From Chlorops oryzae (taxonomy: Eukaryota; Arthropoda; Insecta; Diptera; Chloropidae), in assembly GCA_020466095.1 (NCBI GenBank), contig JAIPUU010001358.1, positions 1-64,000 of the forward strand: a DNA stretch of 64,000 nucleotides. Direction: 5' to 3'. Under the pieces are notes generated by a model. It was not told the DNA's origin, did no database searches, and was given only the letters and a program-made list of their open reading frames with translations. Numbering within the stretch: the first letter of the stretch is position 1; every line of letters starts with the position of its first letter. The translations under genes were made by a program, and so were the position numbers. Shown here piece after piece: positions 8,686-30,746 of this stretch.

Positions 8686-9928
8686 TTATTTTAAAAACCC
8701 CTCTGGTGACTTTAACGTATCAAAACACGGATTTTGTCTTTCTAAAGAAAAAGCATAATTTGGGCCATCATCTTCGCAGACAGACTGAACACTGGTTGCA
8801 CACTGGTGAAGCTTCCGAAACTTCGAATAAAACCAGCCTGCAACGTAGGCATGGGCATTTTTCTCTAAAAATTCCGTGGCTTCATCAAACCGAAATTCAA
8901 ATCGTTGCATAAACGTTCTTTCGGGACTTCGAATAGCTTGAAAGCTTTCCCAATCTAAACACTTTTCGGTTTGGAACTGTGTATATCTCTCATATTTAAA
9001 AGACGGACCATCTTGAATTTCTTCTACGTTACAATTGCCTTCAATAAGTTCTTGAGAATAGTCTAAGACCCATCGTTTTTGATAGGACTTGGAAAACATA
9101 TAAACTTTCACTTTGCCGCCATGATCAGTACGGTTGCGGATTTCTGAAAAGAAATGCTCCAACCCATCCTGGCAGATCTTCCTCATTTCCACATATGCAA
9201 AGCCTTCTTTTTCTAAAACCTTCCACAAACACAGGAGGCTGCTAATGTTTAGCAGCCAAGCTTTTATCCAACAATAATCGGATGTTTTGTGTCTACCGTT
9301 TTTATCGGAAATTTTAATTGAATTTAAAAGCACGTGGACTTGATCAAAAATTTGATTTGCCGATCAGTACCGCGAAATACACTTTTCATTTCAGACTTCG
9401 ATTCTGTATTCCTACTGTTGAACAAATCAAATAGTTAATTAACAAAAAAGGGCGAACGATGCCGTATTTGGCATCGTTCGCGCTTCGGAACTTGGAAGTG
9501 TTCCTGAACTATATAAAGCATTTAAGCCCGAACCAACTTTGTCACTTAGCACTTCCGCTGCTAAGTAGAAGCGGTGTTTCGTAAAATTATGTAATTTTAA
9601 ATGTCGGAGAGTTAAACTGTGTGCAACTTTATAAGTTCCTTTTGAACTGAGTTCAAAAAGAAGTTGTATGTCGCTCCAGCTTACCTCTCCGCCATTATAA
9701 TTTACAATATTATCTGCCTTATAAATACAATTCCTCGTACTTTTCAATAAGTGTGGGGAATCAAAAAGTACATAAATTTTTGAAGACCCTACATTGAAAA
9801 AGGTTTCGATTCACTGACTCCAACATCTTTTATCAGTCCATAAAAGTTACTGCCCTGATCAGAAACTAAGCGAATTGGTTTAAAATGAATAGAAATAAGT
9901 TTTTCTCTTGATTCGAAAAGATATTTAT
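8686..9928 (-). pseudogene. P-element/THAP9-like transposase, C-terminal two thirds
   Basis: Minus-strand pieces follow the order of P-superfamily transposases: IRLVSDQGSNFYGLIKDVGV with the second acidic residue (9840-9890), FDSPHLLKSTRN, SWSDIQLLFEL, LAAEVLSDKVG...LPSSEA (9439-9780), WLLNISSLLCLW and the hallmark QDGLEHFFSEIRNR (8686-9333, stop at 8686). P transposases are GTP-dependent DNA cut-and-paste enzymes. Stops and frameshifts lie between 9330 and 9440. The piece begins at a LINE junction: joining 9928 to 12679 restores the frame. It is the 3' end of the relic whose other parts are at 12679-13111, 13782-14234, 16162-16258 and 30674-30746. Confidence 0.8.
9452..9481. repeat. Perfect 12-bp hairpin within the P-like relic
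   Basis: GCGAACGATGCC and its exact complement flank a six-base loop (GTATTT). It overlaps the relic's coding sequence and ends just before an in-frame stop. No element ends were seen around it. Confidence 0.7.
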
Positions 9929-12678
9929 TTTTTTTATTTTTTTTTATTTTTTTTTTTATTGAAGTATGAAAGGCTTAAATTATTACAGTATATTGTGATT
10001 CCTAAGGCTACTTTAGTAAGTCAAGCTTACTGTATGAAGTGCCAATTAAAAGACAATTGTAGGAACGAAAACGGGAATTAAAAAGACAATATATAAGTTG
10101 AAGATAAAGAGAAGATTAGATCATAGGTTGAAGTAAAGTTTCTATTTCCTGATAGTTGAAATTAAATAACCACGATTTTACTAAAATTAGCAAGTTTTTA
10201 AATCTTTTTTCAGACCTTATGCTGTATGGCAAACTATTAAAGAGTCTATAGGACAGTACGGGAAAACTATTTTGAAAGAATGTTGTGTGAAAAATTGGTA
10301 TATTCACACCGTTATTAGTATTTGAGCTTCTCAAATTGTGCCTGGATATTCTTGGTTGATTGTTTATGTTTTTTGAGCAGAATGTTTTCAAGATCTTATA
10401 GTAGAACAGGTGACGTATTGGTAAAATATGTAATGAAGAAAAAAGCTGAAAAGAAGGAGTTACCCGATTAACGTTGCATATCCTTCTTAGTATGTTTTTT
10501 TGCAGTACCAAAAGTGGAGTAATTTTGTTTGCGTATGCTCCACCCCAACAAGCAATACCATAGTTTAATTTTGAATGTACGATTCCATAATAAAACATTT
10601 TCATAGTCGTCAAAGAGCAAGATTTAGATAAAAAGTAAAACTTTCTTAAGGCACAGCGCATGTAGTTTTTTAGAATTGAAGTATGATTATGCCACGTAAG
10701 ACTGCTGTCAATAGTTATTCCCAGATATTTGAAACTATCTACTGCTTCTATTTTAAAGCAGTTAGAATGGCAATTCAAATTATAATTGTAAAGAAGCTGT
10801 GATGTGTGTGCATTTGAAAATCTTAAGCACTGCGGGTCGTGGTAGTAAATATCTATGTCCGGAGGGGGTCTAGAGGTCTCAAGTTGAAAAACATTAGTTT
10901 TGTTTTAGAGCTTATTACAAGTTTGTGTTTTTTTAAACCATTTCCCTCAGTATTGCAATGTCATGATTTATTTCACAAATTAAGTTCAGTCTAGTCCTTG
11001 AAGTATAAGCGATCCCCAAATCATCAGCGAAAGCGGTGATGCCCCCAAAGAAGTTTAGTTTAAAAACAGAGTTAATATAGACTAAAAATAGAATGGGTCC
11101 TAGTACAGATCCTTGCGGAACACCAAGCGATAAAAACACAGGCTCACTTAGAACATCATCAATTTTAACTCTTTGGGACCGGTTGCTCAGGTACGAAGTA
11201 AACCAACAATGTATGAAACCTCTGAAACCAGTTCTATGGAGTTTATTTAAAAGTATTTTATGGTTAACCATGTCAAATGCTTTTGTTATATCTACAAAAA
11301 GACTTGCACATGAACTTTTTTTATCCAAACCTTTCATTACCGAGGTGCAAAATTGAAGCAGTGCATCTTCGGTGGAAAGTTTATTTCTGAAACCAAACTG
11401 ATTTGGACTTAGAATGTTTTCCTTAGCCAAAAAGTCAATGACACGATCTTTTATTGCTTTTTCTAACACCTTTGAGATAACAGGAAGTAATGAAATAGGT
11501 CTGTAATTTACTTTATTTTCACGTTCACCTTTTTTGAAAAGTGGAATAACTACAGCTTGCTTGAGCTCTTTTGAGAATACACCCGTGCAGACACTAAGGT
11601 TGAATATATGAGCCAATATGTAGATATGTTAAACGCAATTTTTTTGATTAAAGAATTGGATATTCCATCAATTCCACACGACTTTGAGTTATTGAGAGAA
11701 TTAATTCGCCTTACAACCTCTATAGCAGAGATGTTTTCAAAAACAAAACTGTTACGTGTATATCTGTCTTCTGGAATGACAGGGTCGTAGCTAGAAGTGG
11801 ATTCTATGTTGAAAAATGGGACTAACGTAGTTGTTGAATTTCTTTTGGCAACAAACAAAAAACTTTGTTTCAAGAGCATGTCTGTTCCCCTCTTTTCAGA
11901 GAGATCATAGAGTTCTTTTTACGAGATTGATTCGTCAATTCATTTAATAATTCCCATTCTTTGCCTACATTGCCTGCGCAATTTAAGAATTTCGAACGAT
12001 AGTAATTATCTTTAGATTTAATAACTTCCTTTTTGACAATATATACCAATTTCTTATATCTCTCTTTTAGAGACAAGTTGTTGGGGTGTTTCTTTAGTTT
12101 ACGACCGAGTTTATTTTTTAGTTCAATTTTTTCAGCAAGCTCATCGCTGATCCACATCTTAATTTTTTTGACTTTTTGACTTTTCGACTTAAGCATCTGC
12201 GAAGTAATGCTAACATATTTTTTCAGAGTGCTAAAGAATAGAGAATAGGCTTCCGTTGCATCATCAAGAGTATAGATATTATCCCACATTTCTAAACGAA
12301 GGAGGTTATTGAGATTGTTGAAATCTATTTTAGTATAAAATTTCGCGTTATTTTTATCTTCCGAGCGATTCTGTGGAATTTCCAAGAATATACCAGTCAT
12401 GCAATGGTCTGAGATCCCTAAATCAATATTAATTATGTTGTATGAATTTTGGATTGTTTTAAAACGACCCAGAACATGGTCAAGACACGAACCAGTCAAT
12501 GGCCTAGTTGATTCATTTAGGAACGAAAACAGTCCGAGTTTGGCAAGAAGTACGTGGTAATTGTCGGATGTTGCATTGTTCAGGAGAAGGTCTAAATTGA
12601 AATCGCCCACTAGAAGGAGGTTGTTTGAAAGAATACCTGACAGACAGTTTTTGAGCTCGAGTAAGAAGTTCGAAACCG
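9929..12678 (-). mobile_element. Non-LTR retrotransposon (LINE), 5'-truncated, inserted in the P-like relic
   Basis: On the minus strand the element starts inside the endonuclease domain at 12678 and ends in an A-rich tail at 9929-9960. It is flanked by the 9-bp duplication GATATTTAT (9920-9928 and 12679-12687). A 5' truncation, A-rich tail and short TSD are the marks of target-primed reverse transcription. Removing the element with one TSD restores the reading frame of the host P-like relic. Confidence 0.85.
10116..12678 (-). pseudogene. LINE ORF2: endonuclease fragment, reverse transcriptase, C-terminal region
   Basis: Three minus-strand blocks give ORF2. Block 1 (12678-11870) is the APE endonuclease C-terminal half with LLVGDFNLDLL and ISDHCM. 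Block 2 (11879-10933) is the reverse transcriptase: NYRPISLLPVISK, NQFGFR, DITKAFDMVNH, GVPQGSVLGPILFL and the active-site FADDLG. Block 3 (10778-10116) has SFKYLGITIDSSLTWHNH and HSKLNYGIACWGG. ORF1 and the endonuclease N terminus are lost by truncation. Frameshifts near 11870 and 11600 and a break at 10780-10930 separate the blocks. Clade is Jockey/CR1-like by motif feel; not resolved. Confidence 0.85.
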
Positions 12679-13111
12679 GATATTTATGAACTACTTGTTT
12701 TTGAACTGGTCCATTTGAGAAATAATAGGCCAATGGCTGCCGCCAAAAACACCTCAAATACTTTGAAGCATAAAAACTAAAACATGATTACAATTGAGAA
12801 AAGTTCGATTTTCATCACCGAAATCCTCTAAACCTTAAATTCGGTCCTGCACTTGGTCGTACTGGAGATACGTGCAAAGAGACATTTCATCACAAGAGAT
12901 GGAAACGTATCTCTGCTCTGCAGTGAGCCCACTAGCTCGAACTTGGAGAGGTTTTCAGGGTAAACTCACCCAGACCTGGACCCCTTGGCCAAATTCTTTA
13001 CAAAATTGTAAAATGTGTCCTCAGACGGCCATCGAAAATTATTTTTAAGAAATTTATATGCTACTGGTGACAAAAAGGAAATTTGAAGACTAATGAGTTT
13101 AATATCATCAC
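12679..13111 (-). pseudogene. P-element/THAP9-like transposase, first catalytic region
   Basis: On the minus strand one reads SPVAYKFLKNNFRWPSEDTF, then after a frame change LTAEQRYVSISCDEMSL with the first acidic residue (12870-12905), YLQYDQVQDRI, GLEDFG and RQPLAYYFSNGPVQK (12690-12740). These match in order the start of the RNase-H-like domain of P/THAP9 transposases. Both ends of this piece are insertion junctions with TSDs: the LINE on one side and a hAT relic on the other. Two frameshifts and stops are present, so the gene is dead. Confidence 0.8.
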
Positions 13112-13781
13112 CAGGGCTAATCAAAATTTTTATGAAAAAACTTCAAACTATTTATTTAATATTTAAGAAAAAACACTCAAAATATTTGCGATAAATATTT
13201 ACGATAAAAATTTTTTCAAAGGTATTTTCCATATATTATTGGTTTAAGTAAACTTATTGCAATAAATTATAAGATGTTTTCGAAGATTTTAAAAAAATGA
13301 ATGAACGTCGGCTATTGTCTAAGACTCGTTTATAATCAGAGAAAGATCTTTCAACATCACAGCTGACGACTGGGCGTATTTAAATGCTTGCAACTCGTTT
13401 GGCGTTAATTCATCAATATATTTATCTGGCTCATTGAATTTATGACCACTTAATATCATTGAAAATTTTTCGCAACGTAGCAAATCCAGTATTTTTGTGG
13501 ACAACAGAATCATATTTATGAATTTGAAACGCGCGCAAGAGCAACGTGTAACCATTTTTGAAAACAAATCGTCACAGCGTTATGAATTATGTTTATCTGA
13601 TTGGAAAGCATGCTTATTACGAGTATTACGAGTATTCTACTGCATATTCGTATATAATATGAAATTTTAGCCGAAATATTTACGGAAAATCAAAATTTGC
13701 TGATATATTTATTTTTGCCCAGAAGAGTCGAAATATTTAAATAAATATTTATTATTTAAATAAATATTTTGATCAGCCCTG
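13112..13781. mobile_element. hAT relic inserted in the P-like gene
   Basis: The 670-bp element has inverted termini CAGGGCTAATCAAAA / CAGGGCTGATCAAAA and is flanked by the 8-bp duplication ATCATCAC (13104-13111 and 13782-13789), the size typical of hAT. Removing it with one TSD joins RRYGDD to IKLISLQ in frame in the P-like relic. It carries a fragment of hAT transposase on the minus strand. Confidence 0.85.
13290..13565 (-). pseudogene. hAT transposase C-terminal (dimerisation) fragment
   Basis: Minus frames give YIDELTPNELQAFKYA, then after a 1-2 base shift CDVERSFSDYKRVLDNSRRSF. This is the hAT C-terminal dimerisation signature (…VERSFS.YK…RRS.). The rest of the transposase is absent. 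Confidence 0.7.
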
Positions 13782-14234
13782 ATCATCACCATATCTACGT
13801 CCTCGAGGAGTTTTGTTTACATTACTAATGCTGTGCCGAATAATAATAGCTTCCTGAGGATGCAGCCCTCTTTCATTTAATAAATATTCTTCACTTTGGA
13901 TGGTCTTTTCCCGTAAAGAAGCGATTTCTTGTGATTTGACCTTCTTCGGATATTTGAAGTTTTCGCTTCAATTCCGCAACTTCGTTGCGGAGACGTATGT
14001 TTTCGTCAACCACATTGAAGCTACCAATATCTTACGAATTTTGTGAGGGCTGTGAATTGAAAACTTGTTCATCAATGGAGGGTCCCCTTACATAGTTTTC
14101 ATTTATTAGTTCTAAATCCGGTACGGCATCCTGCTTCAGCTTTTTTCCAACCTTCTGCTTTTCGGAAAAATTCCTCTCACACGCGAACAAACTTTCGGGT
14201 TTCCAACCTCTGACCTCGAAAGACTCCAAACAAA
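13782..14234 (-). pseudogene. P-element/THAP9-like transposase, exon 2 (THAP C-half and leucine-rich linker)
   Basis: The exon starts at a usable acceptor (CAAG, TTTGTTTGG) at 14234. It encodes the second half of a THAP zinc finger: CLESFEVRGWKP (the conserved W-x-P), LFACERNF (where THAP has C-x2-H-F; the H is N here) and KLKQDAVPDL. After a stop near 14033 the frame gives ENIRLRNEVAELKRKLQ, a short coiled-coil-like segment. After a further frameshift comes SEEYLLNERGLHPQEA...RGRRYGDD, ending at the hAT junction. It joins in phase with the exon at 16162-16258. Confidence 0.65.
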
Positions 14235-14310
14235 CTTGACGTCTATTCAAATATGTAAAATTTAAATTAAGCTCTTAGAAGAATTTATTGACACGAACAC
14301 AAAGCACTTA

Positions 14311-14436
14311 GGAAATTCACAAAGCCTCATAAAATGCCTTTTCAATTTAGCACAAGCTAATTTTTTCATTTCTGAAACAAAAAGAATTCGGTTGGGTATA
14401 AATTTAGGAGGGATTTTAAGAGGCTTTGTGAATTGT
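14311..14436. repeat. Inverted repeat with ~17-bp arms
   Basis: CACAAAGCCTCATAAAA at the left faces TTTTAAGAGGCTTTGTG at the right, around ~90 bases. Confidence 0.6.
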
Positions 14437-14570
14437 TAAATTAACTGCCTTATTCATAAAAGTTCAATACTGAAATTAGCTTCAATATTTTTAACTTTCG
14501 GCGCGTTTTAATTTCATAAACAGTGTTCGTGAAGCATTTTAATTTCGAAAATTTAACAACAACAAAATTT

Positions 14571-14684
14571 CCCCTTATTCATTAACACATTTTTAATTTT
14601 AAATTCAGATTAAACTGAAAATTTCCATAAAACAATCGAACTTTATCTGAATTTAAAATTTAAAATGTGTTTATAAATAAGGGG
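14571..14684. repeat. Palindromic MITE-like hairpin, 114 bp
   Basis: The left arm CCCCTTATTCATTAACACAT... and right arm ...ATGTGTTTATAAATAAGGGG are about 42 bp each and nearly complementary. TSD unresolved. Confidence 0.7.
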
Positions 14685-16161
14685 ACAATTTTTTTTTACG
14701 AATAAATGCTGAACTCCAATACGGCAGTGGTAGTGGCAGTGACAGTTTTCGAAATTTTAGATAGCACTATTTGATATTAAAAATATTAAAGTAGGTATTG
14801 CAATTTGTTCCATATCAAACAGTGTTCTCTAACATTTGAAACACTGTCGCTGCCACTGCCTAGGCTGAAAAAATCTATCTACATAAATACTTGTTGAAGT
14901 GTATATTTTTTAAAAAAATTTTATTGAAAATTAAGAATTATAAAAACATTGTTTTATTAAATTATTTAATGGCTATTTTACATGTACGCTTAAATTTAAT
15001 CAACTTAAATTTTTCTATTTAATTTTATGAGTCCGACCGAAACGGGATTTCTTGACCTACACCGGACCGAAACACAGTGTTTGGTCGAACTCGTTCAATT
15101 TTCTACTTCTGGAATTCAATAAAATTTTAAATACACTTAACAGGATTATTAAATCCCACTCCTTTAAAATACGAACCGACGCTAGAGCTCTTAGAATAAG
15201 CTCCCAAAATTGAGCCGGCGAATTTAAATTAGTGGGATGTAACAATCCAATAACACAAAATACAGACTAGCAAAACAATTTTGTTTTTTTTTCTTGCATC
15301 TTAATTATGGATAGATTACGTACATTACAACAGAATTCGCGCCCTTGCTACTCAATCGGCTCCATTCGAAATTTTGCATTTCTTGAAAATCATTCAATCT
15401 CTTTGCCAATTTATGGAAAATAATATTTTTCCCAAAATATATATTATTCTCAATCGACTACTGCATCAGTTAATGTAAGCCTTAGTTTTCTAGGTGTTCT
15501 ATTTTTAGATGAAAAATGTAGCCGAATATAAACAAAATTGATTAAAAAATTATTGTGGTGATTTAGTAGCAAGGGTGCGAAATGGTGTTCAACAATTTTC
15601 GAAAGTCTAATTGCTATATTAATTGTAATGTTACTGTTTCATTATAACAAATAAGAAACATTTTATGAAACTTTTAAGAATTTATTTTTTTGCAAATTAA
15701 TTTAAGTTGCTCAAAAAAGTAAAGAATTTACCTTGGCACAAAAGTACTTCTGAGTATCACTGAATTTAATCGTTTTCGGAATTGAAAAAATCAAAAACAC
15801 TGGATGCCTTACATATTTCGCTTTCAGATGTGTACCTATTTCACATTCCACTTAGAAAATGTAATTAACATCCAGCTCCATAACTACAAAGTGCAGTATT
15901 TAAAGATTAATTCGGTTGCTCGACATTCCAAATCCGATAGCGAATGAATTCCGTGACACCCCAGAACATTTTCTGGCTTTTCAATATTTATGACAAATTT
16001 CTGCTAGGGAAACACAAACACAAATGCATGCTAGAAGTTGGAACTCCTATAATCACATCACAACTACAAAACATACGAATTTGAAAACAAAGCTTCCATA
16101 TATTTTCAACATTATTCGCAAATGTATGTTTTTGGATGTGATTACAAGCGCGCTCATGTAC

Positions 16162-16258
16162 CCCGCAAAAACCTGTCGGCTTCAATTTCGGTGCGGGGAA
16201 ATCGGAAAAGATGTCTGGTGGTAGGCTCGCATTCCATCACGCATTTCTTCTTGTTGGC
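16162..16258 (-). pseudogene. P-element/THAP9-like transposase, exon 1 (THAP N-half)
   Basis: The minus strand continues the frame that starts at 30687. After a 14.4-kb insertion it reads KKKCVMECEPTTRHLFRFPR then EIEADRFLR and a donor site at 16161. C-x3-C followed by H-x-F-R-F-P is the start of a THAP finger. With exon 2 (14234) the finger order is C, C, FRFP, W-x-P, C. The 8 bases 16251-16258 are one copy of the TSD TTGTTGGC. Confidence 0.65.
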
Positions 16259-16339
16259 CAGTGCTGCCAGTTTAGGGAAATCTTCCCTAAATTTAGGGGA
16301 TTTTCTGGTCTTCAGGGTAGAAAATTCTTTAGAGGAATT

Positions 16340-17085
16340 TTTAGGGGATAAAATTATTTTTTTAGTAGATTTCGGTGGAGCACTTTTTCGTGCCGGTGTT
16401 ATGTCTGCATTACTGTCGGTTGAAATATTAAGTCTTTTTAATGTGAAATGGGGTTCATATTCCCGTTGCGAAGAAAAGAGACGGCTGCTTGCAAAATTTT
16501 CCGCAGAGCTGTTAAATAATGAAATCATTTTGGAATTTGAATTCACTTGATTGCCCGCAAAATGATTGCAGTAATTTTTTCGTTTATCATGAACAGAGCA
16601 GATATTTATATGCACGAAAAAATCGCAAATATGCGCATAGAATATGCTTAAAAGATTGCAATATATGCTCGAAAAAAAATAAAATATGCATGAAAAAAAA
16701 TTATTTAAAATGAATTATTTTAATTTTTTTTTTTTTTTTTTTTTGAGTCACAGCTTAAATAGAGTCCGACACCAGCTGGTAAAGCGAAGCCAAAAATTTA
16801 TCATGCACCTTCGGCCCATTACTGAAAGTGGAACTGAAGACCAAAAAAATAAATGTAGACATGTACATTTTAATTTTTTCTTTTTTTTTTAAATTTATTA
16901 ACAAAAATCAGTCCATTTATTGTATAACGCCTAAAACAAAACTAACATTTCATGTTTCATAATAGTTAATAAAAGAAAAGAACAAAAAAAAAAAGATTCA
17001 TGGCCCCAGCCGAATGCAATTTTTATGGTGAATGAATCTGTAAACCGAAACCGAACCTTCAGTCAGACTAAACAGCTTAATCTTC
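16340..17085. other. No supported gene; poly-T tracts
   Basis: Open frames on both strands at 16265-16600 overlap the hAT end, so they cannot be one host gene. The minus frame is K/S-rich. Homopolymer T tracts lie at 16726-16744 and 16878-16890. Confidence 0.4.
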
Positions 17086-17089
17086 AATT

Positions 17090-17400
17090 TCAGAATTTGC
17101 ACAAATTATTTATATGGTGCTTAAGATTTTCCATAGTGAATGATCGTCTCTTCTGCGTGTAGACGTTTCCATACAGAGAGAAACTGCGCTCAAACATCAG
17201 TTGAGGTTGTTGGACAAAACGCAAACCTTTCCAACATATCTGGCAAAAGCTTTTTGACACACGGGTCGGCTGTATAACAAACATTATATATATCGATCAT
17301 ACTTTTAAAAACCTTTGTTTCTTTTCAAAATTTGTTCAAATTTTTCTTGAAAGGCTTTATTTTTTCAAAAGTGAATTTAAGTCTTATCCATATGCAGCGG
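17090..17400 (-). pseudogene. hAT transposase C-terminal (dimerisation) fragment
   Basis: The minus strand reads ADPCVKKLLPDMLERFAFCP, then CPTTSTDV, then one frame over ERSFSLYGNVYTQKRRSFTM and ENLKHHINNLC. This is a hAT dimerisation region with one frameshift. Upstream it runs into the repeat at 17370-17651, which has a short open frame starting MENGKETNRC. It is probably the remnant of the autonomous parent of the MITE at 45260-45743. Confidence 0.65.
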
Positions 17401-17651
17401 TTGGTTTCCTTTCCGTTCTCCATCTTATTTGTTAGATTTTTGAACTCAAATTAAACAAAAGTGCTGCCTGATCGTCAAAAAGAGAGATATCAGCGAAAAA
17501 TGTGGTATCACCTCTCATGTTTATCGCGAATAGTCTCACTATTCACGAATAACTTTCGTGAATTAGCTATTCATGAATAAGACCGATTATACGGGAAAAT
17601 TTGCTATTCGCGATATTCTTATTCGTGAATAAGGCGTACGAATAAACGTAG
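17370..17651 (-). mobile_element. Relative of the 45.3-kb MITE, one end only
   Basis: The reverse complement matches 45260-45540: terminus CTACGTTTATTCGTACGCC, the inner palindromes of TTCGCGAATA type, and the GAGAACGGAAAGGAAACCAA block. The terminus at 17651 is followed by TA. The other end is not seen; the sequence leads into a hAT dimerisation fragment instead. Confidence 0.65.
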
Positions 17652-17873
17652 TATATGCCGCGAACATGCAAAGAAAAATAAAAATATGCTCTAAACGGTC
17701 AAATATACAAATGCATATGCAAATATGCTTTATGTGCAAATATCCGCTCTGATCATGAATAAGACTGCAAAAAAAAATCTCAATCATTTTTGTTATTCCT
17801 GAATAATAAGTGTTTTTTTTAAATCATTTTTTCGTTATTCATTGGCTGAAATTATTTACTTTCAGTCCCAAAA

Positions 17874-17922
17874 TGCATTCTTTTGCAGTCTTTTGCAGTC
17901 TTTTGCATTCTTTTCACTTGTT
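17874..17922. repeat. Short tandem repeat of TTTTGCAGTC type
   Basis: Four 11-bp units (CTTTTGCAGT / CTTTTGCATT) run head to tail. The GACTGCAAA complement occurs at 17763 and 18042-18055, so the block 17760-18080 may be a decayed inverted-repeat element. Confidence 0.6.
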
Positions 17923-19799: not shown

Positions 19800-19808
19800 A
19801 TTTCTGTG

Positions 19809-21890
19809 GGCTCCGTGAAATTTTGGCCGCGTGAATTAAGCCCGCGATAAGTTTTTTGGTCGCGGCCTTAATTTCATTTTTGCGAATGAAATATGACCGC
19901 GATAAAAATCCAATTTTTATCGCGGTCAAAAATTCATTTTTTCGTTGCGGCCTTATTTCATTCGAAAAATGAATTAAGACCGCGCGGTCAAAATTCATTT
20001 CTTCATTGCGGCCTTATTTCATTCGCAAAATGAATTAAGACCGCGCGGTCAAAATTCATTTTTTCGTTCGGCTTATTTCATTCGCAAAATGAATTAAGAA
20101 CGCGCGGTAAAATTACATTTCTTCATTGCGGCCTTATTTCATTCGAAAATTAATTAAGACCGCGCGGTCAAAAACATTTTTTCGTTTCAAAAGAATTCCA
20201 CCGAAAATTATCAATTTACACTAGCTTAACACCGAAATGCTCCAAAGAACCAAAGATCTGAATTTAAATTGAAATTTTTCCGGCAGATTCCGAAAAGGCA
20301 AAAAAAAATTTTTTCTATCGGGACAGTTTTCCCTTATTTTGAAAACCCGTTTTTTTCGAAAAATATTTTTTATGTCATTGGTTTTTTTTGCTATAACACC
20401 GCAATTTTTAATCGAAATAATACACGTTGGAAAGCTTATATTCCAGCGCATAAAACGGTGCATCGAACGTTTATCACAATCTAATACTTAAAATTTACAA
20501 CATCGTAAAGTGGTAGAGGAAAAAGTTTAATTTTTTAGATTTTTTACCATGTTTTAAATTTTTCAGATAACGGCGATTCTCTACACCAGACCCCTAAAAA
20601 CTTGTTAGGCCTTGGATTTCAAAGCCAATTCAATTCGAAACATTTTTAAGTACCCAAACTTCAAAATCGGTTAAGTATTTTTAAAGTATAGCCAAATTTT
20701 CCAAATAAACCCAAAATGAATATTTTTAAAGATGTATAAAAAGGGCAGCGGCCCGCAGTGGTATTGCTCCATACATTTCTTGGAAAAAAAAGAAGGATGC
20801 TCCTAGGATCATGAAATTTTGCCACAGCTAATTTTTTTGAGCCTAGTCAAGAAAAATTGCAAAAATGGTCAAAATCGGTCAGTTCCCTAGGGGAACCCCC
20901 CATAGAGCTTTATTACAACTTTTATGGGCTTACATATAAATGTAGGCCGATCTTAACGAAACTCGGCCAGAAGGTATGGAAACCAAAGTCATAGTTTTGT
21001 GGTATAAATGATTGAAGTGTTCGGTCCCTAGGGGTACCCCTTGGACCAATATAAAAATTCTGTAAATTTTATTTAATAATAGGCTATAACATTCAAAATA
21101 CTTAACCGACTTTGCAGTTTGGGTGCTTAAAATGTTTCGAATTTTGGCTTTAAAACCCAGGGCCCAACAAATTTTTACCGGGTGCGGGTAGAATCGCCAT
21201 TATCTTGAAAAAATTGAAAAACGTGTTAAGAAATCTTAAAATTTTATTTTTTTCTCTACATTTTTACGATGTAGTAATTTAAGTATTTGAGGTGCAGAAA
21301 CGTTTATCAGTATATCTGTTATATGCGCTGCAACATTAGCTTTACAAACTGTATATTTATTTGTATTCCTCGAAAAATAGTGGTATATAGTGAAAAAACT
21401 AGTTAAATAAAAAAAAAAAAATTCGAAAAATCGGTTTTTCTCCAAAGACGGAAAAACTGTCCGATAGAAAAATTTCACTATAGAATTCCTCTTTGGTTCT
21501 TGGAGCATTCGGGTGTAAGCTAGTGTAATTGATAATATTTCGTCGGAATTCATTTTTTGAAACGAAAAAAATGTTATTTTGACCCCGCGCGGTCTTAATT
21601 TCAATTTTGGCGAATGAAAAAAGGCCGCAATGAAGAAATGTATTTTGACCGCGCGGTCTTAATTTCATTTTGCGAATGAAATAAGGCCGCAACGAAAAAA
21701 ATGAATTTTGACCGCGCGGTCTTAATTTCATTTTGCGAATGAAATAAGGCCGCAACGAAAAAAATGAATTTTGACCGCGATAAAAAATTGGATTTTTTTA
21801 TCGCGGTCATATTTCATTCGCAAAATGAATTTAGGCCGCGACCAAAAACTTATCGCGGGCTTAATTCACGCGGCCAAAATTCCATCCACC
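19809..21890. mobile_element. Foldback element FB1, 2.08 kb, in the transposase gene
   Basis: The flanks carry the 9-bp duplication ATTTCTGTG (19800-19808, 21891-21899). Termini share AATTTTGGCCGCGTGAATTA. The outer arms (about 19820-20190 and 21570-21860) hold tandem ~60-bp units built on CGCGGTC...TTCATTTT and AAAATGAATTAAGACCGCG. The inner arms (20220-20720 against 21080-21530) are single-copy inverted repeats around a centre near 20900. No transposase gene inside. A 9-bp TSD with very long arms is seen in Drosophila FB and in MULE elements; which applies is not decided. Confidence 0.85.
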
Positions 21891-21899
21891 ATTTCTGTG

Positions 21900-23232
21900 C
21901 TTTGGCACCATGTACAGCTTCCACAACCCATCTTATTTTTGTAACTTTTCTGGATTCATTGGCTTCGGTGGTGTGCAATTGATTTTTGTTTCCTTTGAGG
22001 GCTGGCATGAGTAAACGGAATCCTCCTTCTTCAATTTTGTTGACCACATCTCGAAAACCACGATCTACGACAAATATGTCATCCCTCCTTAAGTACATTT
22101 CTGAAGTCTTGGTCTAGCATCACGTTATTCATAATAAGCGTCATTTTGGTTAAAGGATATGGACCACATATGTCTGCGATGAATCCGTTGGTTGTACAGA
22201 TAGTAAAGGGCTTACACAAATGAGTCTTTTTTTGGCCAGAATATGGTTTCCTCTGGTATTCGTTGTTAGTACTTTTCTGGTGACGAATGTATGTACCGTC
22301 GAAAATTAAAACAAGCTGGTCACTTCGAAGCTTTAGCAGTTGGGTTGCTGTTCTTGATGTTTGGGCCAGAAGGACTTCTCTTGAAATATTCTTTATTCTA
22401 AATGATGTAATCACGTCTTTTTTGAAGGCTTCAATAAAACAGCAAACATTGATGACACTTGTTGAGGTCCTTTGATTCCAAATACGGTTGCTGTAACGTT
22501 GTTTGACATAGCGGTTCTAAGCTTGAACAAGAATACTGCGATTGCTTGAATGTTGGTGTTAACTTTACAATTTCAGTGACACTAGCTTTTGTTCCAGCAC
22601 TTTGATATTTTCCCATCGGAGTCCAGTGAGATGTTGTATTTCGCTGTCTGAAACCGTTTCATTATTAATTTTAATAAACAAAGAACCGCCTGTCACCGAA
22701 AATGCTTTTGAAAAAGGGTTCGACCTCTGCACTCTTTAAAGTTGTGGAATTTGAGATGACTTTAAGCTTTGGTATTTCATCCTTAAAAAAATATAGAGCT
22801 AATTAAATGTGTAGAGCAGCAACGATTTTCCCACAGGGATGTAAATTTGGCTTTTTTGTAGACCTGGACGCGAGCTTCGATTGGAACCACTTTCATTCCT
22901 TCTTCTTTTAATTGGCATATAGTGCACCGATCGGTGATTTATAGCAACTCGCTTGATGTTGAAAATCCATGGAATCTTCTTCATCATAAATGTAATCGGG
23001 ATCATTTTCTTCATTTTCGTTTCTTCCTGTAATCCAGCATGTTGTGACGTTGATGGGCCAAGCTCCTGTCCAAGGCGGCGACAATTTATCGCAGAGTTTA
23101 TCCTTCATTGAAATTTGTTTTTTTAAGACGAATGCTATACAGCTGGGCTTCTGCTATCGTATTAATGAGTTTTTTTCGCCCCTTTGAAGATTCGCTACAT
23201 CTTTATTACAGTTTTGACAACGTTTGAACCAT
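21900..23232 (-). pseudogene. IS4EU-like transposase, 5' part, copy 2
   Basis: Same gene as 1-1368, starting at the ATG at 23232. FDGTY, VVDRGFRD and VVEAVHG remain readable, but many single-base insertions or losses (for example near 22090, 22440, 22570, 22690, 22830, 23030, 23090) split the frame. Near 22140-22160 the sequence also differs from copy 1. Most differences lie in short homopolymers, so true decay and sequencing error cannot be separated here. Confidence 0.8.
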
Positions 23233-23493
23233 TTTAGTCAATTGAGAACAATAAATTTTCAAGTTAACACGGTGAGCAATAATGATTGAATAATGAAGGT
23301 TTATTTCTGATTTCCTTATATATTAGGAAAAAGGGCTAAAATATTTTAAAATATGCAACGGGCCCTTGATTAGTCTTGCACTTGCAATAAAAAACCCATA
23401 AAAGTAAAATCTGAGAAACTACACTTTTTTGCTTCAAATTTTTTTAATAGCACCTGGTAGAAAGGTCAGTCCTCTATTTTTTACAAGGCGAAT

Positions 23494-24610
23494 CACGAAT
23501 AATTCGACCTGCAGAACAATTATCAAAATTATTTTCCCAAAATAATGCAAACGTTGTAATCAACGAATTCAGCGATGATGACGACTAAGCCTCTCAGGAT
23601 GAAGTCTTTTTTTTAACAAAAGCAGGTAGAGATGTAAGATCAGTGTTTTGTATAAGTTTAAGTTCGTTTGTTAATAGTTTTCATAGGGGTAGGTTTATAT
23701 TTTATGATTTTAAGTAATATTTAGGTATAAGGTATTGTGGGATGGAAAAATATATGCAATAAAATGTGATCAGAAAACACAAAATTAAACCACAATCTTT
23801 TGTAAATCCAACCACTTGCCCTCTTTTGCTACTTTAACTGCGTAGGTATACAGAAACATCTACCACTTTAGGATGAGTTGAATAATTAAGAAAATGATGT
23901 CAACAGGAATTCTTACTGTTCTAAAAAAAAAAAAAAAATTAAACCGAACAAAAGTTACTTGTGGGGAATTTAATAGATAAAAATTATATGAGCCGCGCGG
24001 ATTATCGAATATTTAATAAATGTCCTACATTTCGTATGAGGTGGTGCCTTTTGTATGGGATTTCGGACAAATGTACCACATACGCAGGTCTACGCCAGCA
24101 TATCAATACTGGGAGGATCTATTTACCCTTATATTTGTCTGAATATCGCAGTGCTGCGCCATCTGAATTAAAATATTTTTTTTTTTTTAAATGAAAGTAA
24201 ATACTAAGGGGTGTTTCTGAAAAAAAATTATAGAGTGGCGCGAAAATGGGAATACACTGAAAAAAATATTCAAAGTTTTCTTTTTAGTTTTGTAAAAAAA
24301 TTTTCTCAGTGTAAAATTTAAAAAAATTTTTTTAGCTTCCTTGTTTTATTATCTAACATAATCTGCTTAGATCGTCTCTCTATCTCAATTGGTTGTTGAG
24401 AAATAAAATTTTGAAAAAAGGCTTATAAAAACGGATGTTCAAGGATATTTCAAGGACCGTTCAAAATAAAAATCTAAAAAGTGGTCTCCACAGTGTTGTT
24501 AGATGGCCGCCTATCGAAAAATCAACATAATTTTAAAATTCCTTTTGATGATGCCGCATGCCTTTGCTTAACCCGCCAGACCCTTTATTTGAGCGTGTAC
24601 GGCTTCGGTA
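23494..24610. repeat. Right inverted arm
   Basis: Pairs with 18105-19222. The plus strand at 23500-23588 encodes the transposase tail (RPAEQLSKLFSQNN...SDDDD-stop), a second copy of the gene end without the rest of the gene. Confidence 0.75.
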
Positions 24611-24649
24611 AGAGATTTCAATCCCTATCCAACAAAAACAATGTTTAAC

Positions 24650-26945
24650 TATCGAAATGCCTCGCCGTGTGTAGAATGAATATTTATCGAAGGAAAATTT
24701 CGATATCTTTGATGCATCAATTCCGAAATTTAAATCTAAAGCACATTTAAATCTGGAGCCCATCGGAGTTCTTTGGAAATGGATAGGTAAATTTGATTAA
24801 AAATAAGATGTAGCTTCAATTAAATCAATATTTTTTTAGATTTCTCATTAAAAAACCAAAAACGGATCTAGAAAATGAAGCGGCGGATGACATTGAAGTG
24901 GAATCACAGTTAATGGAAAAAAATGATGAAAGGTAATCAAATTGTCTTGCCAATGCCAGAAATGAATTTTATAATTTCTCTCTAGCGAAACACCGAAAGA
25001 GAGAGAGAGAAAATTCCAAGAGGCATGGCTGAAACAGTTTCCATGGCTGGAAAATAGAAATTTTTTGCTTTTTGCAAGGCATGCGAAAAGAAAGTTTTCA
25101 AAATTGTATCGCACCTCAAAAGGCACGAAAAATGCTCAACACATTGCGAGAATGTAATAACAAAAAGGAATCAAGCATCCTTGCAGAGCTTTTTGGATCC
25201 AGAGCAGGATGATATATCTAAAATGGTGAAACACGCGGAATTGACAATGGTCATGTTCTTAATAGCACACAACTTGCCCTTTCCTTTTGATGGACCTCTT
25301 CTCCTCAGCTGCTAGCTGAATGTTGTCCCGATTCAAAAGTCGCTAAGCGTCTTAAGTGTGCTCGAACAAAGGCGATACAAATAACTGAAGAAATTTCAAA
25401 AAAAGAGCATCTGAAGTGCTGATTTCAACATTAAGAAAATGTAAGTTTTCAATTATAATTGATGAAACCACAGATGTTTCAGCTTCAAAATGTCTAGTGA
25501 TTGTTGTTAAATTCGTAACAAATTTTATTGTATGTGATCGCTTCCTAGCACTATTAGAGCTGCCCAAGTCCGATGCGAGATCAGTCTTTGAAGCTATAAA
25601 GCACTTTTTAAATTTTAACAACATTCCGCTTCAAAACGTTATTGGTTTGGCTACAGATGGGGCCAGCGTAATAGCCGGCCATTTATCAGGCGTTAAAGCT
25701 TTGTTTCAGGCAGAAACAAATATTTTTTATTTAAAGTGGACCTGCCATTCATTGCCCTTATGCGTAAGCTATGCGTGTAAGAAACTACCACGAGACTTAG
25801 AGTGGTTATGCCGAAATATATATAGCTTCTTTTCACACAGCCCTAAGCGGGTACATGATCTTTAAGAGTTCCAGAACTATTGTTCTGTAAAACCACATAA
25901 GCTTTTAGGTATATCTCAGACCAGGTGGTTGTCCTTAGAAGGAGTTGTCTCCCGTATAGTTGAGCAATGGGATTGCTTGAGACTTTATTTTATTAGTTGC
26001 AAATTGGAAGTAAATGCAGTTAAATCAGATGAATTGGCTGAAAAAATGAATAACGAATTAAAAGTGTACTTTTTATTTCTCTCGTACATTTTGCCATTAA
26101 TCAACAACTTGAATAAAGAGTTTCAATCAGAAAAAAGTCGCTTACCATACCTTTATTCAAATATTAAATCACATTTCCTGTTGATTTTGAACAATTTCGT
26201 TAAAAAAGATATGCTTAATGTTGATGTTGATTACAGAAACATTACAAATTATAACCAAACATCAAAAATTTTCATTGGTTCGAAAGCGGAAATGTTTTTA
26301 ATATCAACTAAAGCGACAACAGAAGAAATACGAGAAATTAAAGGATACATTCTAAACTTTTACGTTGAGATTTTAGATCAACTCAAACTTAAGGCTGGGT
26401 GTCGCATACAGCTGAAACTGAAAACTGAAACTGAATTCCATACAACAGCGACTGAAAAAAACTGTGACTGACTTGTTTCAGTCGCTGTTGTATGGAATTC
26501 AGTTTCAGTTTTCAGTTTCAGCTGTATGCGACACACAGCCTTTAGATTTTATTTTAAAACGGAAAGACTTAGAACTTTTAAAAATAATAACGCCTATGGA
26601 AGTTCTTTCAAGGAATGACAATTCAATTTTTGATCTAATTTTGCAATTCCAAAACTTATGTTATATTGATTGTGATAAAGTTGTTAGTCAATGGACTTTA
26701 TTAAAATTGTGTGAACACAATTTAAAAATGTGATCTAGATATAGACTCCTTCTGGGAAAAAGTCGCTTGCATCAAAAATGGACTGGGCGAGATAATGTTC
26801 CCAGATCTGACCAGTTTTGTATTTTCATTGTTAATCTTTACCTCATAGCTCTGCAGTCGCAGAACGAAAGTTCTCTTCGCTCAATTTGATCAAAACAAGC
26901 CTGAGAAATAAATTGGAAACAAAAACTATACACTGTAAGATCCTC
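24650..26945 (+). pseudogene. hAT-like transposase gene 1
   Basis: Short introns at 24787-24839 and 24933-24985 join N-terminal blocks to a BED zinc finger (CKACEKKVF...HLKRH, ~25075-25130). The hAT core follows: LAECCPDSKVAKRLKC...RTK, FSIIIDETTDVSASK with the first catalytic D (25440-25490), GLATDGASVIAGH, WTCHSLPLCVSYACKKLP, TRWLSLEG, and the C-terminal LPHSSAVAERKFSS...KTSLRNKL (26840-26925). Frameshifts near 25080 and 25310-25430, a stop at 25863 and a 150-bp MITE at 26392 disable it. The spliced N terminus is unusual for a hAT; a domesticated origin before decay is possible. Confidence 0.8.
26392..26541. mobile_element. Palindromic MITE, 150 bp, in hAT gene 1
   Basis: Arms of ~64 bp (AGGCTGGGTGTCGCATACAG... 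and complement) flank a short centre. The flanking trinucleotide TTA (26389-26391, 26542-26544) fits a PIF/Harbinger-type TSD. Inner repeats of CTGAAACTGAA type are present. Confidence 0.75.
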
Positions 26946-27299
26946 TATCTAGGATCTTCGTATTAGGATCCTTCCCAACAAGGATATTCTCAAAGAATCT
27001 TCGAATTAATATTAATTCTTTGAATTATTTATTTGATAACTAATTCTTACTTTATTTTCAAAAACGAGCTTGTATACATTAATTTTCTTATTCAAAAAAA
27101 ATATAAAGCTTGACATACTCAATCAGCATAACTAAAAGTATAAGATTTGATTTACTATACCCTACAACACCATATAATGACTTGTAAAGAATTGATTAAA
27201 AAAGGTATTGTGTGGTCGGCAAAGACTGATTATTTCGTTTAAAAAAAAGTTTTACGTACTGCAAAAAAAAATGCATAACGTATTTAAATTTTTTATACA
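26946..27299. other. No supported gene
   Basis: AT-rich, with a small GGATC-rich inverted stretch (AGATCCTCTATCTAGGATCT at 26939-26958). No element ends seen. Confidence 0.4.
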
Positions 27300-27513
27300 A
27301 AAATACTTTCAAACGTTATATTTTTTAAACAAGAACTGTTTTTTTTTATTTTTTCTTTAAGTGAAGCACTGAGATTTTTTTTGTACTTTTCTAAATACTA
27401 AGCAGCTGTTTAAAAATACTTTTGAGTGTTATATTTTATTAAAGAAATGTTTTTTTATTTGTTTCTATAAGTGAAGAACTGAGTTTTTATTTTTACTTTT
27501 CTAAATACTAATT
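27300..27513. repeat. Degenerate two-copy tandem repeat, ~110 bp
   Basis: The unit AAAAATACTTTCAAACGTTA...TTTTCTAAATACTA (to ~27402) is repeated from ~27414, with shared GTGAAG.ACTGAG and CTTTTCTAAATACTA blocks. Confidence 0.65.
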
Positions 27514-27660
27514 CCCAAATTTCCACACAAATTTTTCTTTCCAAATTCTTAAGCTATTAGATAAGACGGGTGAGACTAAGGGAAATTTCTTCTATTTCCC
27601 TTGCCCTTTCTCGCCTACTTGATCGGTTATTTGGAAAGAAAAATTTGTGTTTGGAAATCG
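27514..27660. mobile_element. Small palindromic MITE, ~150 bp
   Basis: The arms CCAAATTTCCACACAAATTT... and ...AAATTTGTGTTTGGAAATCGG (about 33 bp each) face each other. No coding content. TSD unresolved. Confidence 0.65.
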
Positions 27661-27677
27661 GGCAATATTAAAACAAT

Positions 27678-28104
27678 AAACAAGTGAGAAAGCTAAAGTC
27701 GGTCAAGCCCAACTTTGAAATACCCAGCGTCCCGACATTATTGGCGCACTACGTTTTGCCTTTCCGTACGAAAGTTACCACAAAATTAATGTTTGCTTGA
27801 CTCCATTTCTGAGCGTGGCAGTGGGCGGATGTCTCCCACTTTTACTTAGGATCATACTCGGACCCGATATATACCTGTGTGCCAAATTTCGACTTGGGTT
27901 GGTCCAGCCGTTTCGGAGGAGATCCGGACACAAACGAACAGACAGGCAGACAGACAGACAGACGGACATGTCTAAATCGATTCAGTTTTTGATCCTGATC
28001 TAGAATATATATAATATATATATGTCTATATCTACGGAGCTTAGTTCTGGCTGTTACAAAATTTCGCTCAAAACTAATATAACCCCGCTTACGCTGGGAT
28101 AAAA
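27678..28104 (-). mobile_element. DINE-1/mini-me-like element
   Basis: On the minus strand it runs from TTTTATCCCAGCGTAAGCGG at 28104 through (TA)n, the core AGGATCAAAAACTGAATCGA and a (GTCY)n microsatellite (complement of 27936-27968), to the end TTTCTCACTTG at 27678. This is the mini-me layout described for flies. The copy is ~430 bp against ~770 bp at 44275, so it has an internal deletion. Confidence 0.75.
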
Positions 28105-28339
28105 AATTTGTAAATTTTGTAAAACTGAAAAAACACATTTTATTCAATGAGTAAACAAAATTAACCTGCCAAAATAACTAGTAAGTATGGTTTTACATAT
28201 TCGGTAAGCTTTATAATCGATAATTACGCAAAAAAAAATTTGATACATTTTGGATACGCTTTGAAACTTATTTCGATACGAAAAAAATAAAGTGAGTGGC
28301 AACGCTGCTCGTTGCACACAAAAAAACACTGGAAGACCA
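28105..28339. other. Unassigned; possible hAT terminus
   Basis: AGTGGCAACGCTG at 28295-28307 has the form of a hAT right end (complement CAGCGTTGCCACT). No matching left end or 8-bp duplication was found, so it is noted only. Confidence 0.3.
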
Positions 28340-30425
28340 TTGCGTGAAAAGTAAAAAACACGTTCGAATGGTAGCCGAAAATTAGATGCAAAAAGAAATC
28401 AAAACATTAGTAGCTTTATGAAGCCCTCGATATCAATTCAACGAAAACAAGTAGAGCTGAAGATTGCAGTTTTTGTTGCCAAACACTGTTCAACATCTAT
28501 TGTGGATGAGCTTGGAGAGCTTATAGCGGGTCTTGATCCAAGCTCTCAAGCACTGTCGAATATAAGACTGCACCGGACAAAATGTACAGGCAAGCACACA
28601 CAAATACAGTTTATAAAAAACGATTGTAAAAGCTGTTTATCGTTTAAATTTTGAAGGCTACTGAAAACAGTGACAATAGCCATACTTTCCAACAAACCCG
28701 CTCTATAACCTCGTTCCTAGTAACGTAAATTAAGCCGAATTTGCTGCTGATCTGATGTGAGAGGTCATCGTGGCGAATAACTTTAACGGGAATAGTTGAA
28801 AACGTGTCTAAATGTTTTTATTCGATTTAAAAAAAACATTTGTTACCGCGAAAAAAATCAAGACAACTTTTTTCCTTAAATTCAACGATAACCATTTTTT
28901 CGTGCTTAGGTCTCATAGAAAACTTTATATCACCATGTATTTTGTAGGAACTAGCTGAAGATGTTGGTGATTCAAAATATTCCATAATTGCTGATGAAAG
29001 CACAATGGTTGACAACAGAAAAGTGATGTGTGTTATGATCCGTTACTTCAGCAAAGCACGAAGAAAAGTGCGTACGACATTTTACTCACTGATGGAACTC
29101 GAGTGTGGAACTGCTGATGCAATGACATCTTCCCTCAAAATCCAACTTGAAAAAGATAAGTTAAAACTACAAAATCTTATTGGAATCGGCGTTGATGGCG
29201 CGAACACAATGGTGGGTCAGCATCATTCTGTTTCATCAATTTTGTTGAAAGAAATTCCTCATTTGGTTACTGTTAAATGCGTGTGGCATTCGTTACACCT
29301 CTGCGCTGAGCACGCATGCGATGTTCTTCCAAAAAATTTGGGTTTTTTAGTGAAAGAAAGTCACTCATGGTTTTCAAGGAGTACATACAGAATTGTGGAA
29401 TACAAAAAACTGTATGAGGCTTTGAGTGAAGCTATTCCTAATCAGATTCCAAAGTTGTCGGGCACACGTTGGCTAGCTCGTTCTAAATGTATTGAGAACA
29501 TTTTAGATCAATGGGAAACCCTTCTCTTACATTTTAATTTCATGAGAAATTCTGAAAGAGGAGATTCCGGTTACAAAGCTGAAATGCTTTTTCAAATGTT
29601 TCAAGACAATTCAAACAAAATTTATTTACTTTTTCTACGTACTGCCTTAAAAAAAGTTTTACAGGTTAACTTATTATTCCAAACTGAGTCAGTAGAACCG
29701 CTTAAACTTTTTGAAGATTTGTGTGACTTGATAGAGTCGAACTTAAAAAAAATTGTTGCAGTGAATTTAAATTTCAAAACTACTTAATGCCTGTTACATG
29801 CATTGACTTTGGATACGATTTCAATGAATTTGGCCTTCTTTTTGACGCGAATGCACTGCTATCAATAAAAAAACGATGCATGGATTTTCTTATAAAACTA
29901 GTAGAAGAATTACGGATAAAAATTCCCAAAAACGTTTTTATGTTAGAAAAAATTAGTATACTGACTCCAAAAGTTGCTTTATCGCAATTTGAACCTGAAA
30001 TTAAATGTTTAGCATCAGATTTCAAAAACGTTTGCGTTGATGTTGATGAAACAATAAATGAATGGAATCCGCTTCATAATAGTGATATTGGAAATTTAAC
30101 GACAACGGATGAATTTTGGGCAAGAGTCCTTGACATCGAAGATGCTCGGAAGGAGCCTAGATACAAACACATTTGCCTACTTGCGACCTCTTTGTTGTCA
30201 TTGCCGTTTTCAAATGCATCCGTTGAAAGGGCTTTTTCGATCGCATATATTGCAAAAAGTAAACTACGCAACGAAATGTCCATAATAACACTTGAAGCAA
30301 CAATGAGGATAAGATTTTTAGTTTCGGGAAGTGCGTCAAGGTTTGAAGGATCACAGAAAATGTTAAAACATTTTTCATCGGAGAAAGTATATGAGACGGC
30401 TGGCGACATTGATGTATTAGAATAA
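28340..30425 (+). pseudogene. hAT-like transposase gene 2
   Basis: A partial BED-like end (LEDHCVKSKKHVRM, ~28325-28370) precedes QVELKIAVFVAKHCSTSIVD and SSQALSNIRLHRTKC. After a non-matching interval 28586-28946, possibly an intron ending TTTTGTAG, the core continues: YSIIADESTMVDN with the first D, GIGVDGANTMVGQHH, CVWHSLHLCAEHACD, SGTRWLARSKC. A single frameshift at about 29785 separates this from 29787-30425, which ends with FSNASVERAFSIAY...KSKLRNEM, the hAT dimerisation domain. It lies 250 bases inside the right end of the 14.4-kb hAT element with matching orientation, so it is the likely source of that element's mobility. A missing N-terminal finger half and a stop near 28418 argue that it is now dead. 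Confidence 0.8.
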
Positions 30426-30673
30426 TGTAAGTATTAACATAAAAATTATTTCGTAAAATAAAATGTAAGTTTTGAGTTTTGAAAAAAATTTTTAATTACA
30501 CGCAATCTGCTGAGATTCTAAACTTTAGAAGCATGAAATTATAAAATGCTGGAGACCGATGCCTATTACCCCTAGTTGCATCTTTAAGGGGAGCAACAAC
30601 CAAATTTAGCGAAATTTTGGGCCTATTTTGAAACATTTAGGGGATGAAGCCAAAAAAAAAACTGGCAACACTG

Positions 30674-30746
30674 TTGTTGGCTGTCATCCTGAAATTTCAT
30701 ATAATGCATTAAATTAGAAAATATAATTCATAGCTAAAAACTTACG
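30674..30746 (-). pseudogene. P-element/THAP9-like relic, start codon and 5' intron
   Basis: On the minus strand a donor GAAC|GTAAGT (30746/30745) and acceptor TTTCAG|G (30689/30688) bound a 57-bp intron, followed at once by ATG ACA (30687-30682). The TSD copy GCCAACAA (30681-30674) comes next, and the frame resumes at 16258. The coding part is only two codons here; the case rests on the frame and TSD match with 16162-16258. Confidence 0.55.

What the first reader, a model, noticed from the sequence alone, without database searches (positions are those of the whole stretch)
8686..30746. One P-element/THAP9-like gene relic can be followed through three nested insertions over 22 kb
Five minus-strand pieces (30687, 16258-16162, 14234-13782, 13111-12679, 9928-8686) give the order of a THAP9/P transposase: THAP N-half, THAP C-half, coiled linker, SCDEMSL, SDQGSN, QDGLEHFF. 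At each of three breaks the insert has a clean duplication (8 bp TTGTTGGC, 8 bp ATCATCAC, 9 bp GATATTTAT). Removing the insert with one duplication continues the frame. A 57-bp 5' intron and a ~1.9-kb intron with usable sites are also present. The pieces and TSDs are seen; the single-gene reading is inference. It could be an old P-superfamily element or a domesticated THAP gene later lost.
Basis: partly seen in the sequence, partly recalled or inferred. Interest (0 to 1): 0.9.

Follow-up and report, generated by a model that had tools for sequence, protein, structure and literature searches.

The report
Interrupted relic of a P-type transposon
Scattered pieces over 22 kb are one dead copy of a P-element-type jumping gene into which three other mobile elements later inserted; sister copies without those insertions survive in the same genome, so the reading is sound but the thing itself is of an ordinary kind.

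Summary
Minus-strand pieces carry, in order, both THAP halves, linker, HTH, split RNase H and GTP-binding domain of a P-superfamily transposase. Each of three inserts has an exact duplication: GCCAACAA (14,415 bp, hAT-type ends), GTGATGAT (670 bp, CAGGGCT ends), ATAAATATC (2,750 bp, reverse transcriptase).

The ~1.9-kb gap inside the THAP domain is an intron; four sister loci have an intron at the same codon (84-436 bp).

It is a transposon relic rather than a lost domesticated gene. Its own subfamily occupies 22 places (62-100% protein identity; 18 have a stop within the searched piece). A sister subfamily forms complete 5.3-kb P elements: 3 of 4 loci examined have both inverted repeats and a perfect 8-bp duplication; the fourth shows only its 5' end. 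No terminal repeat was found for the relic itself. The three insertions post-date its split from the 65.63-Mb copy (pieces 94.3-98.7% identical) and pre-date its split from an insert-sharing copy at C1:65.72 Mb (98.4-99.2%). New subfamily, known kind, modest interest.

The parts
30746..30858 (-). 5' part of the element upstream of the intron-like stretch (non-coding or leader); homology to paralogs begins at 30858
   Evidence: L069 95% and L070 86% identical up to 30858 / 30852; these two go on matching each other further upstream, so the window copy has lost or replaced its original 5' end
30689..30745 (-). candidate 57-bp 5' intron (GTAAGT...TTTCAG)
   Evidence: sequence; similar stretch in paralog L069 with donor GTAAAT; no transcript evidence
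30674..30688 (-). start of exon 1, ATG at 30687-30685, ending in the duplication GCCAACAA (30674-30681)
16259..30673 (.). insert 1, 14,415 bp, ends CAGTGTTGCCAGTTT / CAGTGCTGCCAGTTT, with hAT-type coding pieces and further nested repeats
   Evidence: absent in L069 and L070
16173..16258 (-). rest of exon 1: THAP N-half (ANKKKCVMECEPTTRHLFRFPRTEIEADR)
   Evidence: contiguous with 30674-30858 in two paralogs
14243..16172 (-). 1,930-bp intron within the THAP domain, with an inverted repeat inside (arms 14558-14613 and 14642-14697)
   Evidence: same codon and phase as introns of 84, 85, 265 and 436 bp in L041, L045, L039, L029; for the repeat
13782..14242 (-). exon 2 part a: THAP C-half, linker / coiled coil; ends in duplication GTGATGAT
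13112..13781 (.). insert 2, 670 bp, ends CAGGGCTGATCAAAAT / CAGGGCTAATCAAAAT
   Evidence: absent in L067 and L068
12679..13111 (-). exon 2 part b: HTH (PF12017) and RNase H N-part (SCDEMSL); ends in duplication ATAAATATC
9929..12678 (-). insert 3, 2,750-bp non-LTR retrotransposon fragment with reverse transcriptase and A-rich tail
   Evidence: RVT_1 5.1e-29; absent in L067 and L068
8427..9928 (-). exon 2 part c: SDQGSN, GTP-binding insertion domain (PF21788), RNase H C-part (QDGLEHFF), C-terminal tail; stops and frame changes
8279..8426 (-). 3' non-coding part of the element; homology to paralogs ends at 8273-8279

Best explanation
A dead copy of a P-superfamily DNA transposon. Its transposase gene had a short first exon (THAP N-half), an intron at a fixed Arg codon of the THAP domain and one long exon for the rest. 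Alive, the family would have moved as P elements do: THAP domain binds the ends, GTP is bound by the inserted domain, the split RNase H domain cuts and joins, leaving an 8-bp duplication (mechanism from the literature, PMC7776569; not tested here). This copy decayed by stops and frame changes, and a 14.4-kb hAT-ended element, a 670-bp hAT-like element and a retrotransposon inserted into it, spreading it over 22 kb. Shown: parts and order, duplications, empty sites in paralogs, the shared intron position, the multi-copy family, complete sister elements. Inferred: splicing, that this subfamily itself transposed, and whether an insertion or point decay came first.
For: Collinear P-profile hits; PF21788 3.9e-10 and P transposase 6p5a 2.5e-6; 10 of 14 pieces hit sisters L041 and L045 in order; relic in a 15-row clade of a 47-row tree with support 100/99; same intron position in 4 sister loci; 22 places of 62% identity or more (25 of 109 rows, merged by hand), 18 of them with a stop in the piece; two uninterrupted paralogs; sister L041 = 5,309 bp, repeats equal at 22 of 23 bp, GTATTGGC on both sides, while the 99.3% identical L045 has TCCAGTCT and L060 AGCAAGGG, i.e. 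different target sites.
Against: No terminal inverted repeats or 8-bp duplication found for the relic or both ends of any copy of its own subfamily (a 5' start CATATAGTACTATAG in one copy, no 3' repeat). The fourth sister locus, L061, showed a 5' end but no 3' end in the stretch fetched. 18 of 18 copies placed on C1-C4 lie on C1, so spread by local duplication plays a part. dN/dS of 0.375 and 0.60 does not separate transposon from host gene. No transcript supports the splice sites.
Confidence: 0.9

Rival explanations
1. A domesticated THAP9-like host gene that was later lost, with extra copies made by segmental duplication.
For: No terminal repeats found for the relic; a catalytic D, D and E and past constraint (dN/dS 0.375 against L067); copies only on C1 among those placed; C1:65.63 and 65.72 Mb hold neighbouring copies.
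Against: 22 places, 18 with stops; its nearest clade contains complete elements with terminal repeats, 8-bp duplications and near-identical copies at different sites; paralogs begin with a P-like 5' end in one copy. The wider P list is also mainly on C1 (hand count, about two thirds of placed rows), so the C1 bias is weak evidence. A transposase lineage also evolves under constraint.
Confidence: 0.06
2. The 1.9-kb gap in the THAP domain is a fourth degraded insertion, not an intron.
For: The gap holds an inverted repeat with 56-bp arms; its donor in the window reads GTTTTT, a poor splice site.
Against: Introns at the identical codon and phase in four sister loci; no duplication flanks the gap (read by eye); paralog L069 has GTATTT at the same donor; the long form is shared by L068. 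Insertions inside an older intron remain likely.
Confidence: 0.03
3. Unrelated P fragments that happen to lie in order.
For: The window holds a second, separate P fragment at 42.0-42.6 kb, so unrelated fragments do occur.
Against: Empty sites in two paralogs with exactly these junctions; all pieces belong to one subfamily at 75-98% identity to L067 and L068 for most pieces.
Confidence: 0.01

Closest known systems
Drosophila melanogaster P element and its transposase (PDB 6p5a / 6pe2)
   Same: Domain order and motifs; GBD piece 2.5e-6, sister L041 3e-30; 8-bp duplications in the sisters
   Different: Sister element 5.3 kb against 2.9 kb; repeats alike over 23 bp against 31 bp; an intron inside the THAP domain (P's own intron positions are recalled, not looked up)
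Anopheles gambiae P subfamilies (PMC1562414; outline, passages and section 5 seen)
   Same: Several subfamilies in one genome, multi-exon transposase genes, elements of 4.2-7.5 kb, 8-bp duplications, broken copies
   Different: Their repeats are 27-31 bp; their intron positions were not compared with those here
THAP9 genes of vertebrates (PMC7776569, passages seen)
   Same: Full-length likeness to P transposase with an N-terminal THAP domain
   Different: The review says human THAP9 lacks terminal repeats and multiple internally deleted copies; here the family is multi-copy and its sisters have terminal repeats
Uncharacterised Rhagoletis zephyria protein LOC108361430 (P0003)
   Same: 45% identity to L041's transposase over 50% of it; first of the few hits with a given name among 61
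   Different: A 625-aa prediction without a recognisable THAP N-half; two unnamed proteins, P0001 and P0002, score higher

Membership tests
P superfamily of DNA transposons | GTP-binding insertion domain and split RNase H domain of the P type | tested here: met
   PF21788 3.9e-10, over the cut-off; PF21787 0.0039 and PF21789 0.1, below cut-off for the relic but 7.5e-27 and 3.8e-4 for sister L041
P superfamily of DNA transposons | THAP domain and HTH at the N-terminus | tested here: met
   HTH PF12017 0.0083, below cut-off; THAP halves placed by sisters and paralogs, not by Pfam; the zinc-site His and the conserved Trp are replaced in the relic
P superfamily of DNA transposons | Catalytic D, D, E | tested here: met
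   SCDEMS, VSDQGSN and QDGLEHFF align with the P profile; the C-terminal motif also with 6p5a. Which residues are catalytic is recalled
P superfamily of DNA transposons | Terminal inverted repeats with 8-bp target duplication | tested here: not met
   None found for the relic itself, a copy with altered or lost ends; met by 3 of 4 sister loci. Membership is claimed for the family on its transposase; for this copy the ends are missing
Domesticated THAP9-like gene | Single copy, no terminal repeats in the lineage | tested here: not met
   22 places; complete elements in the sister clade
Domesticated THAP9-like gene | Orthologous place conserved in related species | not testable with these tools
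   No related genome is held (stated)

The most novel reading that the evidence does not exclude
The relic's subfamily had stopped transposing before it died: an immobile P-derived gene family with a long THAP intron, spread along one chromosome (18 of 18 placed copies on C1) by segmental duplication and kept for a time under selection, that is, a short-lived domestication nested within a still mobile transposon clade.
Probability: 0.07. Interest if true: 0.5.

Novelty: new member of a known kind. Interest (0 to 1): 0.3.

Why it matters
It shows that a gene spread over 22 kb by three later insertions can be read correctly from raw sequence, with empty sites as proof. It adds a P subfamily whose THAP domain is split by an intron at a fixed codon, with complete sister elements, which helps to annotate P elements outside Drosophila (a search for a whole THAP domain misses them), and it orders the activity of four mobile elements on one stretch of DNA.

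Tried and rejected
Terminal repeats of the relic: scans for inverted ends with 8-bp duplications, for the sister repeat and for a degenerate pattern gave nothing that stands out; the same for the 116.43-Mb copy. The same kind of scan in L009-L019 gave no convincing ends for the intronless subfamilies either; a 49-bp and a 60-bp inverted pair seen (its labels were printed out of order) were not followed. An intron at 12968 (GTGAGT) was weighed by eye and dropped, because the stretch behind it aligns to sister proteins and no acceptor kept the frame. The protein search with the last part of the relic found nothing among 1,567 candidates; the sister L041 found 61 among the 7,996 candidates scored. 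Naming the species was not achieved (one search gave no match). Copy numbers of insert 2 and of the sister repeat could not be obtained. No structure was predicted.
Full report
What is there. The window is G000:C1002:1-64000 of an unnamed 442-Mb assembly. The three duplications are exact and the insert ends fit their classes: insert 1 (16259-30673, 14,415 bp) ends in CAGTGTTGCCAGTTT and CAGTGCTGCCAGTTT; insert 2 (13112-13781, 670 bp) in CAGGGCTGATCAAAAT and CAGGGCTAATCAAAAT; insert 3 (9929-12678, 2,750 bp) carries a reverse transcriptase (RVT_1 5.1e-29) and an A-rich tail. Calling the ends of inserts 1 and 2 hAT-type, and insert 3 jockey-like, rests on recall; a hAT dimerisation domain does lie inside insert 1 at 29787-30422 (3.1e-7).

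Is it P transposase? Searched piece by piece, the last part is clear: GTP-binding insertion domain PF21788 at 3.9e-10 and the solved P transposase 6p5a at 2.5e-6. HTH (0.0083) and RNase H N-part (0.0039) are weak alone and under Pfam's cut-offs, RNase H C-part weaker (0.1), and the THAP halves get nothing. A profile from 12 P-type proteins of the same genome was run over all 1,597 open segments of at least 24 aa in the window, both strands. The first 12 ranks are 8 pieces of the relic, in order along the profile, and 4 segments at 42.0-42.6 kb, a second P fragment. Four of the relic's 8 have E above 0.05 in that scan, and the THAP N-half is not listed, so the profile alone does not carry the whole reading; the relatives do.

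Relatives in the same genome. GBD copies are many: 150 scored of 276 candidates, a lower bound. Among the 47 loci then held, tblastn of the 14 pieces picks out one group: L041, L045, L039, L022, L024 and L029 (L023 is the same place as L029). Identities in this group: GBD 47-55%, RNase H C-part 35-46%, HTH 43-56%, tail 40-47%; 10 of 14 pieces match L041 and L045 in order at E 0.01 or better. A tree of 47 GBD rows puts the relic with 14 others at support 100/99; its long branch leaves its place inside that clade unsure.

The intron. In L041, L045, L039 and L029 a short first exon ends inside the THAP domain just before RRQTW, RRQTW, RREIW and RRMEW, splitting an Arg codon after AG; the introns are 84, 85, 265 and 436 bp. 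The relic reads ADR^RQVC at the same point with 1,930 bp. So the 16.2-kb and 14.2-kb pieces belong to one THAP domain. The Trp of this motif is Cys and the zinc-site His is Asn in the relic. The other P proteins read in full, such as L009, have the THAP domain in one open frame.

Empty sites. The relic's RNase H piece finds 109 matches; 25 rows of 62% identity or more merge by hand into 22 places, 18 on contig C1 and 4 on contigs other than C1-C4; 18 of the 22 show a stop within this piece. Three places were read further. At C1:65.634-65.640 Mb (L068, L069) the DNA matches the window as 8516-9927, 12669-13113, 13782-16130, 16030-16258 and then 30674-30858, at 94.3-98.7% identity: all three inserts absent, one copy of each duplication. 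At C1:116.427-116.432 Mb (L067, L070) the same holds, with 78-90% identity for the stretches at the junctions and about 70% in parts of the intron; its long exon reads 804 codons in one frame with two stops. At C1:65.713-65.724 Mb (L065, L066) a copy 98.4% identical over 8273-13802 and 99.2% over 13752-16593 shares inserts 2 and 3 and 335 bp of insert 1's 3' end; the other junction of insert 1 was not fetched. It may be the other haplotype or a duplicate of this locus. The insertions therefore fell after the split from the 65.63-Mb copy and before the split from the 65.72-Mb copy, provided that no gene conversion has passed between these neighbours.

Transposon or domesticated gene? Sister L041 is a complete element: 5,309 bp, inverted repeats equal at 22 of the first 23 bp, GTATTGGC on both sides, and an 823-aa reading without stops after its own splice. 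L045, 99.3% identical to it over 4.7 kb, has the same ends but TCCAGTCT, and L060 has AGCAAGGG, so these copies sit at different target sites. L061 shows the same 5' end, but no 3' end was found in the stretch fetched. For the relic no such pair was found. Two copies of its own subfamily start to match each other where one reads CATATAGTACTATAG, much like the sister repeat; no 3' repeat was found. dN/dS on the GBD and RNase H pieces is 0.375 (dS 0.25) to L067 and 0.60 (dS 0.065) to L068; dS to L041 is saturated. That fits past constraint and later decay, and does not by itself tell a transposase from a host gene. All 18 copies placed on C1-C4 are on C1, which has 39% of the assembly; the wider P list is also mainly on C1 (hand count), so I give this little weight.

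How broken. Read against L041, the relic has six stops inside the frame and about seven frame changes besides the inserts, by my reading. On the 5' side the window stops matching its paralogs at 30858 while these go on matching each other, so its own 5' end is lost or replaced.

Literature. The review PMC7776569 (passages only) gives the P element's 2.9-kb size, 31-bp repeats, 8-bp duplications, domain order and GTP site, and says that human THAP9 lacks terminal repeats and multiple internally deleted copies. PMC1562414 (outline and abstract, passages, section 5) describes Anopheles P subfamilies of 4.2-7.5 kb with, as a rule, three putative exons and 8-bp duplications. So multi-exon P elements and several subfamilies in one genome are known. 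The searches listed no paper that is plainly about this subfamily; only listings were seen, and I do not claim that the shared THAP intron is unpublished.

Verdict. The bolder half of the interpretation, a domesticated gene later lost, is not supported. It is a new subfamily of a known kind, in the decayed state usual for old transposons.

Noticed in passing
41999-42585, minus strand: A second P-type fragment, C-terminal part only, 82-100% identical to L015 over its three longest open pieces; another subfamily than the relic.
   Followed up: partly
31486-41417 and 47847-57780: Two 9.9-kb stretches 99.9% identical, holding retrotransposon-like open frames: recent duplication, paired elements or an assembly artefact.
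   Followed up: no
1-3433 and 21856-25313: 98.3% identical stretches; the second lies in a block with long inverted arms (18155-19224 / 23492-24558) inside insert 1, with a weak DDE transposase match at 22082-22414 (below cut-off).
   Followed up: no
7598-7912, plus strand: A mariner-type transposase fragment just downstream of the relic (Transposase_1 1.3e-4, under the curated cut-off).
   Followed up: no
G000:C2:86666852-86680849: A run of many THAP domains one after another in large open frames (up to 2,765 aa) elsewhere in this genome.
   Followed up: no
L009 (G000:C1:93366500-93373500): Two identical 859-aa P transposase frames in a 99.7% palindromic head-to-head arrangement; a like pair lies on C117.
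   Followed up: no
L029, high-coordinate end: Two inverted copies of CAAGTATTACAGTATG lie back to back with 8 bp (GTTCAGAC) between them, as if two P-like elements shared one target site (read by eye).
   Followed up: no
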